DNA from: Dehalococcoidia bacterium
Lineage (GTDB): Bacteria; Chloroflexota; Dehalococcoidia; WHTO01
DNA: 36,515 nt
Assembly: GCA_009377665.1 (NCBI GenBank)
Contig: WHTO01000008.1
Location: forward strand, 1-36,515
Direction of reading: 5' to 3'
Shown: piece after piece, positions 22,105-33,782 of the stretch
Numbering within the stretch: position 1 is the first letter of the stretch
Layout: each line of letters begins with the position of its first letter
Made by a program: the position numbers and the translations under genes
Notes under the pieces: model-generated
Database searches by the model: none
Seen by the model: only the letters and a program-made list of their open reading frames with translations
Told to the model about the DNA's origin: nothing

Positions 22105-25098
22105 ATGAGCTCATTCGCCAGACGCAGATACCTCAGACGGACGCGCCACGTTCATCAGCGCGGCAACGGCCACACGCCCCTGGCGTTGTACGCCGGCCTC
22201 GCCCTGCTGGCGCTGGCGAGCGCCGCGGCGCTTGCCGGGGTGGCCGTCGCGGCTTCGATCTACGCGGGGTACGCGGACGACTATCGGGACCCGCATGAAT
22301 TCATCGAGGAGCGCAGCAAGGGCGGAGCCCGCATTTTCGCCGACGATGGCACGCTGCTGTTCCAATACGCTGACCCCAACGAGGGTCTGCGCAACCCGGT
22401 TGCGCTGGACCAGATCTCGCAGCACCTGATCGACGCCACGATCTCGACCGAGGACAACTCGTTCTACGACAACCCGGGGATCAACGTCGAGGGGCTGATG
22501 CGGGCAGCGTGGGAGAACTCGGGCCTGGGTGACAGCCCCGGGTTCCTGGAAGGCAGCGGCGGCAGCTCGATAACGCAGCAGCTCATCAAGCAGCTTTACT
22601 TCACCGATCGCGACCCGGACACCGGCGAGCTGACGGTCAACTTCGAGAACCGTTCGTACGACCGCAAGGCAAAGGAAACCGTCCTCGCCCTCGAGATGAA
22701 CGAGAGGCTTGAGAAGGATGAGATCCTCGAGCTTTATCTGAACACGATTTACTACGGGAACCAGTTCTACGGCGTCCAGGCGGCGGCCGAGGGCTACTTC
22801 GACAAGAGCGCCGCCGACCTGACGCTGGGCGAGGCGGCGATCCTGGCCGGCCTGCCGAACGACCCCAACGTCAACAACCCGATCCAGCGCTATGACAGCG
22901 TTGGCACCCCACTGCCGGGCCCGGTCAACGCCAAGGCGCGCCAGGAAGCCATCCTGGACCTGATGGCCGAGCACGGCTACATCACCCTGGCTGAAGCCGA
23001 GGCTGCCAAGAACGAGCAGTACGCGTTGCTGGAGAGCCGCACGGGCGGCATCATCGAGCGCATCCAGGAAGTGCAGCTCAAGCCTGAGCTGACGAACTCC
23101 TTCCACTTCGTCAAGAACTATCTGCCGACGGTGATTGAGAACATGTGCCGCTCGGGCAGGCTGGCCCTGCCCGACGACGTGGCCTGCACGCAGGACGAGG
23201 CGGCGGAGCAGGGGAAGGCGCCGTTGATCGTCAGGCAGGGGGCCAGCGAGGGCGGTGGGGTCTTCATCCTGGGCGGCCTGCGGGTCACGATCTCGCTGGA
23301 CTCGGCGCTGCAGCTGCAGGCTGAGGAGATGGTCAGGCGCTGGTCGGAGGAGTTCGAGCAAACGCTCGGCGCGAACAACGCCGCGCTGGCGGCAATCGAG
23401 CCGGCAACAGGGCGGATACTCGCCTACGTGGGCAGCCGCGACTTCCGGGCGACCAGCGACATCTTCGGCAATCCGATCACGGACAGCCAGGGCAGGCGGA
23501 TCGACGGCGAAGTCGACATCCTGCAGAGCGCGCAGTCGCCGGGATCGACGTTCAAGTTGTTCACGTACGCAGCGGCGTTTGAGCAGGGCTCGGCCGAGTT
23601 CGAGCATTGGAGTCCCGGCACCACGGTCTTCGACTACCCGCTGCGCATTCCCCTGCCGGGGACAACCTGCAACGGCGAGGCGGGGATCTACTGTCCGACG
23701 AACTCGGGCGGCGGCAGCAGCAGCAGCCGGGTCACCGTGCGCGACGCGCTCCGCAGGTCGATGAACATCCCGGCGGTCTACACGTCCTACCAGGTCGGCG
23801 TGCCGCAGGTGATGTCTACCGCGCACCGGCTGGGGCTGACGGAGCTGTCGAGCGGGATCCTCATCACCTATGGCGATAGCGGTCTCCCCGACGAGCAGGT
23901 CGAGGGCACCTGCGTCAACAGAAACGAGGCAGGGGTCTGTGTTGCCGAGCATCGCTCGATCCAGGACGCCTGCAACTACTCGCTGACGCTGGGCGGCTGC
24001 GAAGTGCGGCCCTTCGACATGGCTTATGCGGCGTCGGTCTACGCGAACAACGGGGTGATGGCGGGGATTCCGAGCTACTTCGACTGGTCGGACCTGACGA
24101 CCACGTGCTCTGACAACGTCACCATCTGCGAGACGTCCCCCGATACGCGCAGGCCGCTGGATCCGGTGGCCGTAACGCACATCGAGGACGCCGAAGGCCA
24201 GGTGCTCTTTGACTTCGTGGAGCCCACGCTGCAGCAGGTCATCGGTCCGCAGTTCACCTACATGGTCAGCGATGTGCTGACGCTCCCGACGGGCACCATC
24301 AGCTTTGAGATCGACGGGCAGCAGGGTGCCGTCTACGGCAAGACGGGCACCAAAGAAGACAACAGCGGCCTCTGCGCTGGCTGCACCACGGACACCTGGG
24401 TGGTCGGCTACTCCAGCCAGGTAGCCCTCGCGGTGTGGGTCGGCAATACGGGGAACCAGGGATTCTCGGGTGACGCGTTCGGCTCCAATACGGCCGGGAA
24501 GATATTCCAGGAGTTCATGAGCGTCTTCCACCAGGGCAAGCCCAACCAGCCGATCCCAAGACCAGACGGTCTGACCGAAGGCAGCGCCGGCGGCCCCTGC
24601 ATGCTGAACGCCACCGACCTGATGGTGGTCGGCAGCGGAGGCAACTCCGAGGCCGTCGCGGAGGGGGAGACGCCATTCTGTCAGAGGGCGACGATCGACA
24701 TCCGGAACGAACTGCTGGCTACGGACTGCGTACCCGAGGAGTACCGCGACGAGCGGGAATACCTGAACATCCCGGGCGGCATAGTCGTTGGTGGGTCCAG
24801 TGGACAGCCACCGACTGAGGAGAGTCCCCTGTGCGCGGACGACGAGGACGGCCTTCCCTTCTTCATCGTCGCCGACCCTACGGGTGACTTCGATCGCGAT
24901 GGCGTACCGAACTACGTGGACAATTGTCCCCTTGTGCCCAACAGCAATCAGATAGACACCAACAACGACGGAGAGGGCAACGCCTGCAGCGGACCGGACG
25001 ATGATGATGGTGATGATCGCGACGGCGACGATAACGACGACGATGACGATGACGACGGTGGGTTCAGCCTCTTCCCCACACCCTCCTCGGATGACTGA
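22105..25098 (+). CDS. Class A penicillin-binding protein (GT51 + transpeptidase) with C-terminal thrombospondin type 3-like repeat and Asp-rich tail
   Basis: GT51: STEDNSFYDNPGINVEGLMRA, GGSSITQQLIKQLYF; transpeptidase SPGSTFKLFTY (SxxK), RSMNIPAV (SxN), YGKTGTKEDN (KTG). Tail DFDRDGVPNYVDNCPLVPNSNQIDTNNDGEGNACSGPDDDDGDDRDGDDNDDDDDDDGG. Confidence 0.93.
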   Translation: MSSFARRRYLRRTRHVHQRGNGHTPLALYAGLALLALASAAALAGVAVAASIYAGYADDYRDPHEFIEERSKGGARIFADDGTLLFQYADPNEGLRNPVALDQISQHLIDATISTEDNSFYDNPGINVEGLMRAAWENSGLGDSPGFLEGSGGSSITQQLIKQLYFTDRDPDTGELTVNFENRSYDRKAKETVLALEMNERLEKDEILELYLNTIYYGNQFYGVQAAAEGYFDKSAADLTLGEAAILAGLPNDPNVNNPIQRYDSVGTPLPGPVNAKARQEAILDLMAEHGYITLAEAEAAKNEQYALLESRTGGIIERIQEVQLKPELTNSFHFVKNYLPTVIENMCRSGRLALPDDVACTQDEAAEQGKAPLIVRQGASEGGGVFILGGLRVTISLDSALQLQAEEMVRRWSEEFEQTLGANNAALAAIEPATGRILAYVGSRDFRATSDIFGNPITDSQGRRIDGEVDILQSAQSPGSTFKLFTYAAAFEQGSAEFEHWSPGTTVFDYPLRIPLPGTTCNGEAGIYCPTNSGGGSSSSRVTVRDALRRSMNIPAVYTSYQVGVPQVMSTAHRLGLTELSSGILITYGDSGLPDEQVEGTCVNRNEAGVCVAEHRSIQDACNYSLTLGGCEVRPFDMAYAASVYANNGVMAGIPSYFDWSDLTTTCSDNVTICETSPDTRRPLDPVAVTHIEDAEGQVLFDFVEPTLQQVIGPQFTYMVSDVLTLPTGTISFEIDGQQGAVYGKTGTKEDNSGLCAGCTTDTWVVGYSSQVALAVWVGNTGNQGFSGDAFGSNTAGKIFQEFMSVFHQGKPNQPIPRPDGLTEGSAGGPCMLNATDLMVVGSGGNSEAVAEGETPFCQRATIDIRNELLATDCVPEEYRDEREYLNIPGGIVVGGSSGQPPTEESPLCADDEDGLPFFIVADPTGDFDRDGVPNYVDNCPLVPNSNQIDTNNDGEGNACSGPDDDDGDDRDGDDNDDDDDDDGGFSLFPTPSSDD

Positions 25099-25128
25099 CG
25101 CCGGTCGGACGAACCCGGTTCCCGGCCT

Positions 25129-25842
25129 TTGAACCAGGCGCGTCGCTGGCTCTCTTCGGCAATCGCGTCGCTCGGAGCGCAGTCCCCTCTGCAGACCATC
25201 TCGATGATGGCCGCGCTTGGGATTGGGGCCCTGGCGATGGTGGCGATCGTCATCCAGCTCGTCGACCAGGGAGCGGACGAGTTCCAGGTGTCGGTGGCGG
25301 CAACGCCACCTGTGGTGGAAACCGAGGAAGCCGAGCTTACGCCGACGCCCGAGGCCACGCCCACTGAGACACCCCCGATCGTCGCAACCTTCACCCCAAT
25401 CAGCGAGGCGCCGATCAGCCGCATGGTCATAGCGCTTGCTTCCGTTGACCACGCCGTGGTCGCGCTGCCGCTGCCGGCAGATGGAGTCCTCTCGGCCACC
25501 GAGGAACCGGGAGTGATAGCCTACTACGACTTCAGTGCGCGGCCCGGCGACACGACAGGCAACGCCCTCTTCGGTGGCTCAGCCGACGGTGTGCAGGACG
25601 GCGTGTTCGCCAACCTTCCAGCGCTGAGCCGCGGGGACCAGATCGTCATCGAGCTTGAGGATGGCGCCGCCTACAGCTACGAGGTGTTCTCCGTCGCCGC
25701 GCTTGGAGGGGGGCCCGTCGATCCCTCCGACGCAGGATGCGCCGAGCCGGGCTGTCCTGGGCTGGGCACGCTGACCTTGATCGGATTCAACTCGTCCGGG
25801 AGCGGACATACGCTCGTCAGGGGCCAGCTGAGCCCGGGCTGA
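25129..25842 (+). CDS. Membrane-anchored degenerate sortase-like (class E/F-like) protein lacking recognisable catalytic His/Cys
   Basis: N-terminal TM, Thr/Pro linker, then VALPLPADGVLSATEEPGVIAYYDFSARPGDTTGNALFGGSADGVQDGVFANLPALSRGDQIVIELEDGAAYSYEVFSV...LGTLTLIGFNSSGSGHTLVRGQL, which follows the sortase E/F layout. Confidence 0.65.
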   Translation: MNQARRWLSSAIASLGAQSPLQTISMMAALGIGALAMVAIVIQLVDQGADEFQVSVAATPPVVETEEAELTPTPEATPTETPPIVATFTPISEAPISRMVIALASVDHAVVALPLPADGVLSATEEPGVIAYYDFSARPGDTTGNALFGGSADGVQDGVFANLPALSRGDQIVIELEDGAAYSYEVFSVAALGGGPVDPSDAGCAEPGCPGLGTLTLIGFNSSGSGHTLVRGQLSPG

Positions 25843-25855
25843 TCTCTAGCGGAGG

Positions 25856-27421
25856 CTAGGTGTCGTCGTCGTCGTTGTGGAGTTCCTGCAACGCCGCGCG
25901 GGCAAGCGCATCAAGCTCGTCAACCAGCAGGCTGAGCTCTTCAATCGCCTGCGCTACCGGCTCCGAGACGCTGCCGACCCGGGTGAGCTGTGTTGACTCC
26001 GTGGCAGTCGACAGCAGCACGCCGCGGACGAAGTCCCCGTCTGACGCCCCGTCATCGGACTCGAGGAGCGCGATGAGGTTGTTGAGGCTTACGGCGTACT
26101 GGTTCAACAGCGCGATGGTGACCGCCTCGGGAGGGGCCTGCGCGAGGTCCTCCACGAGAGCGTTGTGACTCTCCAGCAGTTCCATGCGGGCGGCCGCAGG
26201 TGTGGCGGCGCCTTCATCCGGCGTTGGCGTCGCGGTCGGCTCGTCGGTCGGCTCGTCGGTCGGCCCGGGTGTCACGCTGGCGGTGGGCTCAGGGGTGCCC
26301 GTGGGGTCTATCTCAGGGTCGGGGTCTTGCACGACTTCGTCGTCTGAGGGCGTGACAGTTACGACACCAAGCTGCTCCTGGCTGGCCTCGATGGCGACTC
26401 GCGTGTTCTCGACAAGGGCCTGGTCTTCGGCGGCCACCAGCGGCCCGGCTGCCTCGATCGCCTGGGCGGCCTGCCGCGAGAGCGTGTAGGCGACCGCGAA
26501 CTCGTCGGCGGACTGAATGGCATTGGTGCTCAACTGTTCGTTCAAGTCCTGGGCGCCGGCGGCGAGGTCTTCCAGTTCCTGCCGCGATGGTGCCCGGTTC
26601 TCGATCACGGCGAACTGGACGCGCTCGACGCTCCCGCGCACACGGGCTAGTACCTCGTTGCGCGCGGTGACTTCGTCGACCCGGAAGGAGCTTGCTTCGT
26701 CGGATGGGGGAACATCGCCAACCTGCGGGCCGGGGCCCGAGGGGCCGTCAGAATCGCCGGCGTAGGACTGGAAGAGCAGGAAGCTAAGAACGAAGGCGGC
26801 GGCCACGCCGCTCGTCAGCGGAGCCGCCCATTGAAGGTGTCGCATGAAGCCACCACTGCCGGCGGTCTCCGCGGCCAGTGGCGCGGTCTGCGGTTCGCGG
26901 GTAGCCCTGAGTACGCGCCAGCGCACACCAGAGACGCGCTGCTCGAGGGGCAGTGAAGAGTATTCGTAGCGAAGCTGCTGCGCGAGCATGAGCAGGGGAG
27001 CCATTCGATCGGCATCCCTGGGGAACTGCTGCAGGCAGTCATTAACGCTGGCTCTGCCGCCGACGACTGCTTCGATCGAGGCGTTCAAGCTGCGCTCGAA
27101 GCTCCCTTCACGCGCTGTTATGAAGGCCAGGGCGCGGGAGAGCAATGGCGGCCTCGATGCCGCTTCGGCGACCGGCTCGCGGGCGGCGTCCACGGCCATC
27201 TGCCGGTAGTGGGCGTACTTCTCGGCGCGGGGTTCGACCGAGAAAACATGCTCGAGGGCGCCGGCAATGCTCTGTTTCTTGTTCATCTCGCGGACTTCAG
27301 CAAGCACCTGGGCGCGAATCGCCACCTGCCGGAACGGATCCGGCTCGACGGCGAAGGTTTCGGCCAGGGTGTCTTCGAGCCCGGCCATGACCTGGTCGTC
27401 CCTGTCGTGGAGAATCGACAT
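25856..27421 (-). CDS. Membrane protein with DUF5667-like extracytoplasmic region; probable ECF anti-sigma/partner protein
   Basis: Directly downstream of and overlapping an ECF sigma gene (ATGA); one central TM (PLTSGVAAAFVLSFLLF), extracellular helical region and Thr/Pro-rich segment. Confidence 0.7.
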   Translation of the reverse strand: MSILHDRDDQVMAGLEDTLAETFAVEPDPFRQVAIRAQVLAEVREMNKKQSIAGALEHVFSVEPRAEKYAHYRQMAVDAAREPVAEAASRPPLLSRALAFITAREGSFERSLNASIEAVVGGRASVNDCLQQFPRDADRMAPLLMLAQQLRYEYSSLPLEQRVSGVRWRVLRATREPQTAPLAAETAGSGGFMRHLQWAAPLTSGVAAAFVLSFLLFQSYAGDSDGPSGPGPQVGDVPPSDEASSFRVDEVTARNEVLARVRGSVERVQFAVIENRAPSRQELEDLAAGAQDLNEQLSTNAIQSADEFAVAYTLSRQAAQAIEAAGPLVAAEDQALVENTRVAIEASQEQLGVVTVTPSDDEVVQDPDPEIDPTGTPEPTASVTPGPTDEPTDEPTATPTPDEGAATPAAARMELLESHNALVEDLAQAPPEAVTIALLNQYAVSLNNLIALLESDDGASDGDFVRGVLLSTATESTQLTRVGSVSEPVAQAIEELSLLVDELDALARAALQELHNDDDDT

Positions 27422-28005
27422 CAGCCGACGCCTCCCATTGAGGGCTCCCAGGCGAACTGCTTGGCCAGTATCTTCTGCAGGTTCTTCAATGCCTTGAACT
27501 GGAGGACGCGGACGTTGGATTCGCTCTTACCCAACGCCTGGGCTATCTGAGCGGATTCAAGCCCACCGGCGAAGCGCAGGGCGATAATCTCGCGCTGGGC
27601 GTCGGGCAGGAAGCGAGTGGCTTCCTGCACCATCAGCCGCAACTCCGAACGATCGATGTCATTGCGTCCTTCGACCAACTCCGCCGCGTCGAGATCGACC
27701 CCTTGCCTGTGCGCGGGATTTTTCCGGACGTGGTTGACGACTTCATTGCGAACGATGCGGAATAGCCAGGCTTCGAAGCCGCTCTCCTGCCACCTGAAGG
27801 TGCGGATAGCTCGAACGACCTTGAGAAATGCTTCTCCAGCGATGTCCTCCGCGTCATGCGTATTCCCTGTGCGGGCGTAGACGAAGCGGAAGACCCGGAG
27901 GAAGTAGCGGTCGTAGAGCTCACCGATAGCTTCGTCATTTCCGGTCCTGGCGCTTTCGACCAGCTCGCGCAGGTCGCTTTCAGAGGCTTGCAATAGATCC
28001 GGCAT
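27421..28005 (-). CDS. ECF-type RNA polymerase sigma factor
   Basis: ELYDRYFLRVFRFVYARTGNTHDAEDIAGEAFLKVVRAIRTFRWQESGFEAWLFRIVRNEVVNHVRK...FLPDAQREIIALRFAGGLESAQIAQALGKSESNVRVLQFKALKNLQKIL. Confidence 0.93.
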   Translation of the reverse strand: MPDLLQASESDLRELVESARTGNDEAIGELYDRYFLRVFRFVYARTGNTHDAEDIAGEAFLKVVRAIRTFRWQESGFEAWLFRIVRNEVVNHVRKNPAHRQGVDLDAAELVEGRNDIDRSELRLMVQEATRFLPDAQREIIALRFAGGLESAQIAQALGKSESNVRVLQFKALKNLQKILAKQFAWEPSMGGVG

Positions 28006-29770: not shown

Positions 29771-30910
29771 GTGTCATTTATCAACAAGTGGTCAATGGGA
29801 GCGATTGCGGCGCTGGCAGGCGCCGTTGTAGCTCTCGCGGCCTTTAGCCCGAGCGCGCAGGCCGGCGATGTCGGCGAGGCGTTCGAAGAGGGCGACATCG
29901 ATTGCGTCAAGGACGCGTTTTACGAGGGCCCGGCGATCGAGCTGGGCGACGAAGTCGCGTTCGAGGTGACGTGTACGGTGGACGCGTTCGCCGTTAAGTT
30001 CGGCACCGTCACGCTTTCGGACGCCCTCGTGATCATCGATGTCCTTCCCGACAACTTCATCATTGAGAGCGCAGCGTGCCTGTCAACCGACCCGGCTGAG
30101 CCCGATATCACGGGCAACCTGGTCGACATCGATGGGCAGCAGGTAACTTGTTCGTGGATTCCTTCAGCGGAAGGATTCACCTACACACTCGAGGTAGAGG
30201 GCACCTTCCTTGAGGGGCCCTGCGGCGACCTGAAGAACGAAGCTGAGGCTTCTTTCGGCGGAGACTTCGAGACTCCGGCGGTCTTCCTGTTCGTCGAGTG
30301 CGAGAACCTGGCTGTGACTAAGGCGGCAACGACCGCCACCGACGGGACGGGCGCGACAGTCCGCCCGGGCGGCACGATCGTGTACACGGTCGAGGTCTGC
30401 AACGAGGCCACCGGCTTCGGCGAGGCCGAGAACGTGTTCGTGGTGGACCAGCTTCCGCTGGGTGCCGAGTTTGAGAGTGCGGCTTCTCCGGACTTCGACC
30501 TCGTGGTCGAGGGCAGCGAGATCACGGGCACGAAGCAGAGCCTTCAGCCCGGCGCGTGTGGTGCGATCTTCATCACCGTGAACACCGCGAACGACGCTCC
30601 GTGCGGATTCCAGTTCACTAACGTGGCGGTTACCGGCACTTTGACCGGGAACACGCTGGACGCCGACGACAGCGACAACACCGCCAGCGTCACGACGACC
30701 GTCGTGTGCGCCGACGCCGACGACGACGGCGACCACCACGACGGCGACCGGCCGGGCGGTGGTGGCGGCGGCGGTGGGCCGTCGGTCAGCACCGGCGACT
30801 CGGGCCTGGCCCAGTCGAGCGCGGTAGCCGGCTGGCAGCTGGGTCTCCTCAGCCTGCTGATGGTGAGCAGCCTGTCGGTTGCCTACCTCGGCTACAACCG
30901 GATGCGCTAG
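29771..30910 (+). CDS. Secreted DUF11-repeat surface protein with C-terminal TM/basic tail, GTG start
   Basis: Signal peptide MSFINKWSMGAIAALAGAVVALAAFSPSAQA; DUF11-like ENLAVTKAATTATDGTGATVRPGGTIVYTVEVCNEATGFGEAENVFVVDQLPLGAEF; C-terminus GGGGGGGPSVSTGDSGLAQSS-TM-YNRMR. Confidence 0.85.
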   Translation: MSFINKWSMGAIAALAGAVVALAAFSPSAQAGDVGEAFEEGDIDCVKDAFYEGPAIELGDEVAFEVTCTVDAFAVKFGTVTLSDALVIIDVLPDNFIIESAACLSTDPAEPDITGNLVDIDGQQVTCSWIPSAEGFTYTLEVEGTFLEGPCGDLKNEAEASFGGDFETPAVFLFVECENLAVTKAATTATDGTGATVRPGGTIVYTVEVCNEATGFGEAENVFVVDQLPLGAEFESAASPDFDLVVEGSEITGTKQSLQPGACGAIFITVNTANDAPCGFQFTNVAVTGTLTGNTLDADDSDNTASVTTTVVCADADDDGDHHDGDRPGGGGGGGGPSVSTGDSGLAQSSAVAGWQLGLLSLLMVSSLSVAYLGYNRMR

Positions 30911-31029: not shown

Positions 31030-33243
31030 ATGGCTCGTGCTGACCCGCGCACATCGTTCCCCAAGAGTCTTTCGCACTACAGACTCTCCAGCCTGATCGA
31101 CACAGGCACGATCGGTTCGGTGTACCTCGGTGTCGACCGGCGCGACCAGACGCCGGTCGCGATCAAGCTGATCAACCAGCAGTTCGCGCGAGACAGGACG
31201 TTCCGCGAACGCTTCGAAATCGAGTGGCGGCTCGCCGCCCAGTTGCGTTCGCCGTACAGCGCGCGCGTGTTCGAGGGCGGCTACCGAGACGGTTACTACT
31301 ACATCGCGATGGAGCACGTCGAGGGTAAGACGCTTGCCCAGACTCTTGCCGAGCGAGGGCCATTGCCCCCGCGACGAGCGGCCCGCATCGCGTCTCACGC
31401 CGCGCGTGCGCTGGAGGAGGCTGAAACCTACCGCGTTGTGCACGGTGGCCTCAAACCGGAGAACATGATCATCCTGCCCGCCGGACGCTCCGCGAAGCTG
31501 GTGGACTTTGGGATCGCGGCGTGGTCGAAGGCAGCATCCATTACGCAACCCGGCGGCGTCCTCAGTGGCATGCTTTACGCCGCGCCGGAGCAGGCCCGGG
31601 GCCGAGCCGACCATCGCAGCGACATCTACTCGCTGGGCGCGGTGCTCTATCACATGATCGCCGGCAGGCCGCCGCTGGATGGTGGCGCCATGGAGCTGGC
31701 GACCCGTCCCGGCGCCACGATCGATATGGCGCCGTTCGAGGGCCTCCCGCCGGCGCTGAGCGACGTGGTGGAGCGTTGCCTCCAGCGAGACCCCCGCAGC
31801 CGTTACCCGAGCGCGACGGACCTGGCGGGCGCGCTCGACCACGCGGGCCGGGAGATCGCGTCCGTGACCTCGCTGCCGCCAGGCGCGCCGCCCGAGCCCG
31901 AAGAGGCGCACGCCGAAGCGCCCGCGGAGCCCGAAGCGGTCGCCATGACGCTCGCAGAAACCGCCAGCGAAGACAGCCCGGACGATAGCGAGAGTCCCGC
32001 CGTGGAGCACGCAGCGACTGCCCCCCTGGTCGATGAACCAGTGGTCTTCGAGGACATCTTCGAAGAGGTTGTGCCGATAACGCCGGAGGAACCGGCGGAC
32101 GCCTCGTGGGTGGACGACCAGGGGCTCGACACCGTCACGCGCGGCGAGCCCTCTTTCGCCCGCCACGAGGAGGCCGGCACCAGCGACGAAGCGAGCGAAA
32201 CCATCCTCGCTGATGAAGACGTTCCATCGGCAGGCGTCGAGCTGGCAGCGGGCGACACGCTGATCCCCGAGGACGAGCACATTTCGGAGCTGCCGGCGAC
32301 AACCATCGGCGAACCTCGAGCTCGGCGCGAGTCGCCGCCGGAGGAGGCGACAGCCCCCCCGCCACCGACACGCCCGTTGGAGCCTGTTCCAGCCCCGCCC
32401 TCCGAGAGCCCCGCGGCGCCCGCCACGCGGGCGCGTGGAGGCTCGCTCCGCGACCTGGCTCCGCTGTTGGGTGCGATCGCCCTGGCGATAGTTGCCCTCG
32501 GCGTCGGAGGCTTTCTCGTGCTTGGTCGGGACCCAGGCGGCGGGGAGAATGACGGCGGCCAGGGAGCCGCCTCGGCTGAGACCACGCTCGGCGCGGGCGA
32601 GGTCGGAGCGACCGAAGACGCCTCGGAAGCCACGGCAGAGGCGCCCGAGGCCACCGCGGAGCCGGGTGGACCCATCGCCCCGGCTCTGCCGTTCGCCGAC
32701 GACTTCAACGATCAGGACCCGAACTGGGACGTCGAGCCGCAGGACGAGTACACGAGCTATGCCAATGGCGGCCTTGTGGTATCGGCGGATCCTGGCCTCA
32801 CGAGCAGCGTGCGCAGCACGACGGTGGGACTATCCGAGCTGGGTGACGTTTTCATCGAAGTGGACGTGGTGAAGCTCAACGGTCCGACCGACACCGAGAT
32901 AGGTCTGCTCTGCCGGGCAGACCTTGGCCCCAACCTCTACCACTTCCTGATCCGGCCCTCTGACGGCTTCTTCCGGGTCGTGAAGCAGAGCGGAGAAGAT
33001 CCGCAGTTCGAGGTGCTGGCGGAGGGTACGAACGCTGCGATCACTGACCTCAACCACATAGTCGCGGGATGCGTCGGCGCAGGCGATGCGGGCGTCAGCC
33101 TGACGCTGAACGTCAACGATCAGGAGGTTGCCCGGGTCGACGATCCGGCAGGCCATGCGCCGGGGGCGGTCGGCGTCGAGGTTGTCTCTTTCGGGCTGGC
33201 GGCGCAGGTGCTTTTCGACAACCTGGTGATCAGGGAGCCATAG
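31030..33243 (+). CDS. Ser/Thr protein kinase-like (PknB family) single-pass receptor with HGG catalytic loop (putative pseudokinase) and extracellular jelly-roll-like domain
   Basis: VAIKLI (Lys), VVHGGLKPENMI (HRD->HGG), KLVDFGIA (DFG), SGMLYAAPEQARG, RSDIYSLGAVLYHMIAGRPP; TM LAPLLGAIALAIVALGVGGFLVLG; C-terminal FADDFNDQDPNWDV...FDNLVIREP domain. Confidence 0.9.
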   Translation: MARADPRTSFPKSLSHYRLSSLIDTGTIGSVYLGVDRRDQTPVAIKLINQQFARDRTFRERFEIEWRLAAQLRSPYSARVFEGGYRDGYYYIAMEHVEGKTLAQTLAERGPLPPRRAARIASHAARALEEAETYRVVHGGLKPENMIILPAGRSAKLVDFGIAAWSKAASITQPGGVLSGMLYAAPEQARGRADHRSDIYSLGAVLYHMIAGRPPLDGGAMELATRPGATIDMAPFEGLPPALSDVVERCLQRDPRSRYPSATDLAGALDHAGREIASVTSLPPGAPPEPEEAHAEAPAEPEAVAMTLAETASEDSPDDSESPAVEHAATAPLVDEPVVFEDIFEEVVPITPEEPADASWVDDQGLDTVTRGEPSFARHEEAGTSDEASETILADEDVPSAGVELAAGDTLIPEDEHISELPATTIGEPRARRESPPEEATAPPPPTRPLEPVPAPPSESPAAPATRARGGSLRDLAPLLGAIALAIVALGVGGFLVLGRDPGGGENDGGQGAASAETTLGAGEVGATEDASEATAEAPEATAEPGGPIAPALPFADDFNDQDPNWDVEPQDEYTSYANGGLVVSADPGLTSSVRSTTVGLSELGDVFIEVDVVKLNGPTDTEIGLLCRADLGPNLYHFLIRPSDGFFRVVKQSGEDPQFEVLAEGTNAAITDLNHIVAGCVGAGDAGVSLTLNVNDQEVARVDDPAGHAPGAVGVEVVSFGLAAQVLFDNLVIREP

Positions 33244-33296
33244 CGCCCTCGCCCCAGCGAAAAACAGGTATATACTGCATCAGATTGGAGGCAGCT

Positions 33297-33782
33297 GTGG
33301 AAAAGAAGACATGGACGTTGCTGCTGAGCGTAGTTGCACTGCTCGCTTCGGCTGTATACGCGGCGCCGGCTTCGGCCGGACAGCCCCCGGGGGGTCCCCC
33401 CGCAGAAGAGCTACCGGACCGCCCGACGCCGCCTTCGGCGCCGGATCGTGCCTGTGAGAACGTAGACTGCTCAATCGGCGTACCGTCTTTCAGCGGCGAT
33501 GTCGAAGCAGCCATGGAGCAAGCAAGCGGCTCCGAGGCCAGTGAGAACGTGGCTGCGCCGGACTACTCCGACAAGACGCAGCTGCCTGCGGTACCCGATG
33601 CCCAGCGAGTTGTCGGCACTTCGCGCACGGTCACCGGTGGTGACCCGTCCATCGCGGCCGGCGATTCAGGCCTTGCTGCGGCCGGCGGCGGCCCGGTAGG
33701 AACGATCGAGATGGCGGCCCTTGCGGCGTTGATGCTGGTCGCCAGCGGCGCCGGCGTCTTCGCCTACCGTCGCATCCGCTAG
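33297..33782 (+). CDS. Small secreted surface protein with C-terminal TM/basic tail (GTG start)
   Basis: Signal peptide VEKKTWTLLLSVVALLASAVYAAPASA; C-terminus DPSIAAGDSGLAAAGGGPVGTIEMAALAALMLVASGAGVFAYRRIR. Upstream TATACT and GGAGG. Confidence 0.75.
   Translation: MEKKTWTLLLSVVALLASAVYAAPASAGQPPGGPPAEELPDRPTPPSAPDRACENVDCSIGVPSFSGDVEAAMEQASGSEASENVAAPDYSDKTQLPAVPDAQRVVGTSRTVTGGDPSIAAGDSGLAAAGGGPVGTIEMAALAALMLVASGAGVFAYRRIR

What the first reader, a model, noticed from the sequence alone, without database searches (positions are those of the whole stretch)
25129..25842. Sortase-fold protein that appears to have lost its catalytic residues, next to a PBP
The C-terminal domain follows class E/F sortase order: ADGVLSATEEPGVIAYYDFSARPGDTTGNALFGG..., then VFANLPALSRGDQIVIELEDGAAYSYEV, then LGTLTLIGFNSSGSGHTLVRGQL. 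Active sortases have a His where this protein reads GGSADG (usual form roughly GHVD). They have a Cys where it reads TLTLIGF (usual LTLITC). The usual Arg before the last strand also aligns to a non-Arg residue (GHTLVRG). A membrane-anchored pseudosortase 31 bp downstream of a class A PBP could be a scaffold, inhibitor or sorting-signal binder rather than a transpeptidase.
Basis: partly seen in the sequence, partly recalled or inferred. Interest (0 to 1): 0.82.

Follow-up and report, generated by a model that had tools for sequence, protein, structure and literature searches.

The report
Catalytically dead sortase-fold membrane protein
A bacterium related to Dehalococcoides carries, right after a cell-wall-building enzyme gene, a membrane-anchored protein shaped like a sortase (an enzyme that fixes proteins to the cell surface) whose whole cutting machinery is gone, so it probably binds or regulates rather than cuts; its exact job is unknown and no second example was found.

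Summary
Window 25129-25842 (+) encodes a 237-aa protein: transmembrane helix, Pro/Thr-rich linker, and a sortase domain (Pfam Sortase 30.3 bits, cut-off 26.6; AlphaFold model with eight strands, best PDB matches all sortases). It has no catalytic triad. Ser151 stands where His stands in 99% of 166 class relatives. The catalytic Cys is deleted (relatives 100%). His227 stands where the catalytic Arg is (100%). The neighbouring Thr, Gly and Tyr are also lost. Of 21 conserved columns outside the active site, 17 are kept identically; of 6 active-site columns, none (Fisher p = 7e-4, grouped after the fact). No frameshift restores the motifs. Among 183 relatives, no other full-length domain lacks Cys. 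The same genome has two sortases with His and Cys, so this looks like a divergent paralogue; all three share a two-Cys loop motif found in no other relative. A retained pseudoenzyme is best supported, perhaps binding sorting signals as the dead signal peptidase SipA is proposed to bind a pilus component. The function is inferred. The PBP neighbourhood is real but private to this genome. No orthologue was found, so conservation of the loss could not be tested.

The parts
25129..25842 (+). Pseudosortase gene, 237 aa, TTG start; the TTG start is inferred from the match of its N-terminus to relatives
25198..25254 (+). Transmembrane helix, residues 24-42 (mean Kyte-Doolittle 2.48)
   Evidence: AlphaFold helix 20-51
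25264..25413 (+). Low-confidence Pro/Thr/Glu-rich linker, about residues 46-95
25414..25830 (+). Sortase-fold domain, eight strands between residues 96 and 234
25579..25581 (+). Ser151 at the catalytic His column
25738..25755 (+). Cys204 and Cys209 (CAEPGC) in the beta6/beta7 loop, the only two Cys; a two-Cys motif shared only with the two other sortases of this genome, perhaps a disulfide
25774..25788 (+). TLIGF (residues 216-220), where relatives read TLITC; catalytic Cys missing
25807..25809 (+). His227 at the catalytic Arg column
22105..25098 (+). Class A PBP (transglycosylase plus transpeptidase), probably co-transcribed
29771..30910 (+). Candidate sortase substrate: DUF11 protein ending PSVSTGDSGL, hydrophobic stretch, basic end
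33048..33782 (+). Candidate sortase substrate ending PSIAAGDSGL, hydrophobic stretch, YRRIR

Best explanation
It is a pseudoenzyme: a paralogue of this lineage's class F-like sortases, held in the cytoplasmic membrane by one helix, with an extracytoplasmic sortase barrel that cannot do cysteine transpeptidation. Shown: sortase fold by sequence and model; loss of Cys, His and Arg and of the residues beside them; retention of the remaining conserved positions; intact ORF with coding-like codon use; His- and Cys-bearing paralogues in the same genome. Inferred: it is kept by selection, and its barrel binds a peptide (a sorting signal or a PBP/cell-wall partner) without cutting, thereby holding back or presenting substrates for the two intact sortases.
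For: Pfam and NCBIfam matches. AlphaFold pLDDT is mostly above 90 across the barrel with eight strands, and Foldseek finds sortases about as well as for an intact relative. The His, Cys and Arg columns are all lost, in contrast to 99%, 100% and 100% of 166 relatives. Structural columns are kept 17/21 against 0/6 active-site columns, Fisher p = 7e-4, grouped after the fact. The branch is by far the longest in the tree, 5.2 changes per column, yet the ORF is open, and only its own frame scores as coding. Paralogues with His and Cys. The shared two-Cys loop motif points to a common lineage. [quoted passage not shown]
Against: There is no orthologue, so neither conservation nor dN/dS could be tested. 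The AlphaFold alignment consists of sortases with intact Cys, which pushes the model towards the fold. No binding partner is shown. PBP adjacency is not conserved. One antisense frame is also nearly stop-free, so openness alone is weak evidence. The tree neither shows nor rejects a clade with the two paralogues (p-AU 0.37).
Confidence: 0.62

Rival explanations
1. A recently silenced sortase gene in decay: catalysis was lost first and the frame has not yet broken.
For: Very long branch, weak profile score, no orthologues found in the class or phylum samples.
Against: Conserved positions outside the active site are kept 17 of 21 while all six active-site positions are gone, not the even loss expected of drift. 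The frame is open over 237 codons and codon use is coding-like. The gene sits tightly between a PBP gene and a convergent gene.
Confidence: 0.22
2. An enzyme with a moved active site: Cys204 or Cys209 of the beta6/beta7 loop with His227 replaces the normal pair.
For: His227 lies at the catalytic Arg position and two Cys lie in the beta6/beta7 loop, which in sortases contacts the substrate (PMC5148588).
Against: The two intact paralogues carry the same two Cys as well as the catalytic Cys, so these more likely form a disulfide. No relative shows such a move. Distances in the model could not be measured.
Confidence: 0.07
3. Assembly or sequencing error in a draft-genome contig hiding an ordinary sortase.
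For: Draft genome in 269 contigs with 5.3% contamination.
Against: Three separate losses in frame; the other frames do not hold the motifs; identity to every sampled sortase is low along the whole domain.
Confidence: 0.03

Closest known systems
Class F-like sortases of Dehalococcoidia (NCBIfam NF033748, Pfam PF04203)
   Same: Membrane helix, Pro/Thr-rich linker, sortase barrel, VFxNL, GDxIxI, DGxxYxYxV and TLTLI motifs
   Different: Catalytic His, Cys and Arg and their neighbours lost; beta7-beta8 segment shortened; a two-Cys loop not seen outside this genome
The two other sortases of the same genome (C74, C52)
   Same: Two-Cys motif in the beta6/beta7 loop; loss of the catalytic Arg (Asn there, His here)
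   Different: They keep His and Cys and are probably active; they are not next to a PBP
SipA of Streptococcus pyogenes (PMC4049620)
   Same: Surface-processing enzyme fold without its catalytic residues, in the same kind of pathway
   Different: Signal peptidase fold, not sortase; function shown by experiment
Second sortase of Clostridium difficile 630 (PMC4155245)
   Same: A sortase gene whose product lacks the catalytic Cys
   Different: Interrupted by an in-frame stop before the Cys, a pseudogene; here the frame is open to the end

Membership tests
Sortase superfamily (Pfam PF04203) | Profile score over the curated cut-off | tested here: met
   30.3 bits against 26.6, covering profile positions 20-83 of 125 only
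Sortase superfamily (Pfam PF04203) | Eight-stranded sortase beta-barrel | tested here: met
   Predicted only: eight strands; Foldseek top matches are all sortases
Active sortase | Catalytic Cys at the end of beta7 (TLxTC) | tested here: not met
   Gap at the column; TLIGF
Active sortase | Catalytic His after beta4 | tested here: not met
   Ser151
Active sortase | Catalytic Arg in beta8 | tested here: not met
   His227; Arg231 is a different conserved Arg
Class F sortase (NF033748) | Score over the cut-off of 166 bits | tested here: not met
   40.9 bits; the four intact class relatives tested also miss it, 78-122 bits
Pseudoenzyme with retained function | Loss of catalysis conserved in orthologues under purifying selection | tested here: inconclusive
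   No orthologue found in class or phylum samples or in genome contigs
Pseudoenzyme with retained function | Binding of the ancestral substrate or of a partner | not testable with these tools
   Needs binding assays

The most novel reading that the evidence does not exclude
A dedicated non-catalytic sortase, produced with a class A PBP, binds sorting signals of the GDSGL type and so links anchoring of surface proteins to peptidoglycan synthesis. It would be the first functional pseudosortase that I know of.
Probability: 0.2. Interest if true: 0.7.

Novelty: new variant of a known kind. Interest (0 to 1): 0.48.

Why it matters
Catalytically dead relatives act in several protein-processing pathways, but a search of 5.39 million open papers for 'pseudosortase' and for 'catalytically inactive sortase' found none, and the one paper holding both 'sortase' and 'pseudoenzyme' is about a staphylococcal enolase. 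If functional, it would show that the sortase barrel can serve as a binding module, and would open surface-protein anchoring in Chloroflexota, for which two library searches turned up no dedicated study, to direct tests.

Tried and rejected
A frameshift hiding the motifs: rejected. Orthologues by 8-mer scan of genome contigs: none; by alignment, 78 loci, all relatives whose full-length domains have Cys. Class-wide (394 genomes) and phylum-wide (399 genomes) protein searches: best identities about 30-47% over the core; every matched full-length locus that was examined had the Cys. Conserved PBP linkage: not seen. A tree joining the three own-genome proteins: neither shown nor rejected. LPXTG_anchor model TIGR01167 in the own genome: uninformative, since all 14 control genomes ring.

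Full report
What is there. The window is a contig (C20) of a 2.96-Mb draft genome in 269 contigs, 86% complete. Named relatives found by alignment are mostly Dehalococcoidia or unclassified Chloroflexota, so the organism is most likely a Dehalococcoidia; no genome of its own genus, family or order appeared among the relatives searched. At 25129-25842 (+) an ORF of 237 aa follows the stop of a class A PBP gene (22105-25098; Transgly and Transpeptidase domains) after 30 bases, in the same frame.

Fold. Pfam Sortase matches over its cut-off, but only over profile positions 20-83. In a Pfam search of the own genome and 60 relatives the other listed sortase matches reach profile position 122 or beyond; this one stops at 83. 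AlphaFold with 45 sequences gives a transmembrane helix, a disordered linker and eight strands, with pLDDT mostly above 90 in the domain. Foldseek top matches are all sortases (E 1.9e-8), much as for an intact relative folded as a control. The alignment consists of intact relatives, so the model is not independent proof.

Active site. A profile alignment of 183 sortase ORFs gave His in 180, Cys in 177 and Arg in 175. Apart from the window, gaps at Cys and Arg are ORFs cut by contig ends or partial matches. In a MAFFT alignment with 166 relatives (own paralogues apart), the window has Ser151 at His (99% in relatives), a gap at Cys (100%), Gly219 at the Thr before it (98%), a gap at the following Gly (89%), Gly224 at Tyr (97%) and His227 at Arg (100%). 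Of the other 21 columns conserved at 80% or more, 17 are identical and three are conservative. Fisher p = 7e-4 for this split, with the caveat that the grouping was made after looking. Where exactly the gap falls is alignment-dependent, but the domain has only two Cys, both in the beta6/beta7 loop.

Is it a gene? Codon scores favour its own frame (0.21 per codon) over the five others (all below zero). GC at third codon positions is 0.80, like the neighbours. The open frame alone is weak evidence, because one antisense frame is almost open too. The unequal loss is the better evidence for a retained fold.

Where it came from. The genome has two more sortases, on C74 and C52, both with His and Cys. 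These are each other's best match (47% identity) and both read Asn where essentially all of the 166 other relatives have Arg. All three proteins carry a two-Cys motif (GCQPGQGC, GCDPGQC, GCAEPGC) in the beta6/beta7 loop, found in none of the other 180 sequences. The tree places the window on the longest branch and neither shows nor rejects a clade of the three (p-AU 0.37). Descent from the lineage's own sortases is therefore likely but rests mainly on the shared motif.

Context. Three secreted proteins of the genome end in PS[VI]xxGDSGL, a hydrophobic stretch and a basic end. Two lie in this window, at 29771-30910 and 33048-33782, and one on C6. Sortase neighbours in relatives end in PPDTGSGG, PPSTGSGG, PPATGDGG or LPGTGSGG, so GDSGL tails are plausible sorting signals of this lineage (inference). 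Two of three lying within 8 kb of the pseudosortase is suggestive only. PBP linkage is not seen in relatives: in the genomes with a related PBP, no listed sortase lies near it on the same contig, and no sortase locus sampled has a related PBP within the roughly 5 kb of flank read.

Mechanism. It cannot act as a normal sortase (inference from three missing catalytic residues; high confidence). [quoted passage not shown] The contrasting precedent is the C. difficile 630 pseudogene, stopped before the Cys (PMC4155245). No experiment or orthologue supports a specific partner.

Verdict. The PBP-scaffold idea is unsupported beyond adjacency. With one sequence and no orthologue the interest is moderate.

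Noticed in passing
L122:186-1025 (C74) and L123:2943-3749 (C52), own genome: Both His- and Cys-bearing sortases of this genome have Asn where essentially all of 166 other relatives have the catalytic Arg; possibly linked to the altered GDSGL sorting signal.
   Followed up: partly
window 29771-30910, 33048-33782; L207:1501-2715: Three secreted proteins share a tail PS[VI]xxGDSGL + hydrophobic stretch + basic end, a likely variant sorting signal with Val/Ile in place of Pro.
   Followed up: partly
window 24880-25095: The class A PBP ends in a thrombospondin type 3 repeat and a long Asp-rich tail, unusual for a PBP.
   Followed up: no
L089, L091, L093, L095, L096, L099, L102, L116: Other Dehalococcoidia carry three or four sortase genes in a row; several lie next to proteins with PxTG[SD]GG tails.
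   Followed up: partly
L058:1144-1953: A sortase with Glu in place of the catalytic His but with Cys and Arg kept.
   Followed up: no
window 25856-28005 (-): ECF sigma factor with a membrane-spanning partner that matches no Pfam family, convergent with the pseudosortase 13 bases away.
   Followed up: no
window 25096-25128: PBP and pseudosortase are in one frame, separated by a single TGA and ten codons before the TTG start.
   Followed up: no
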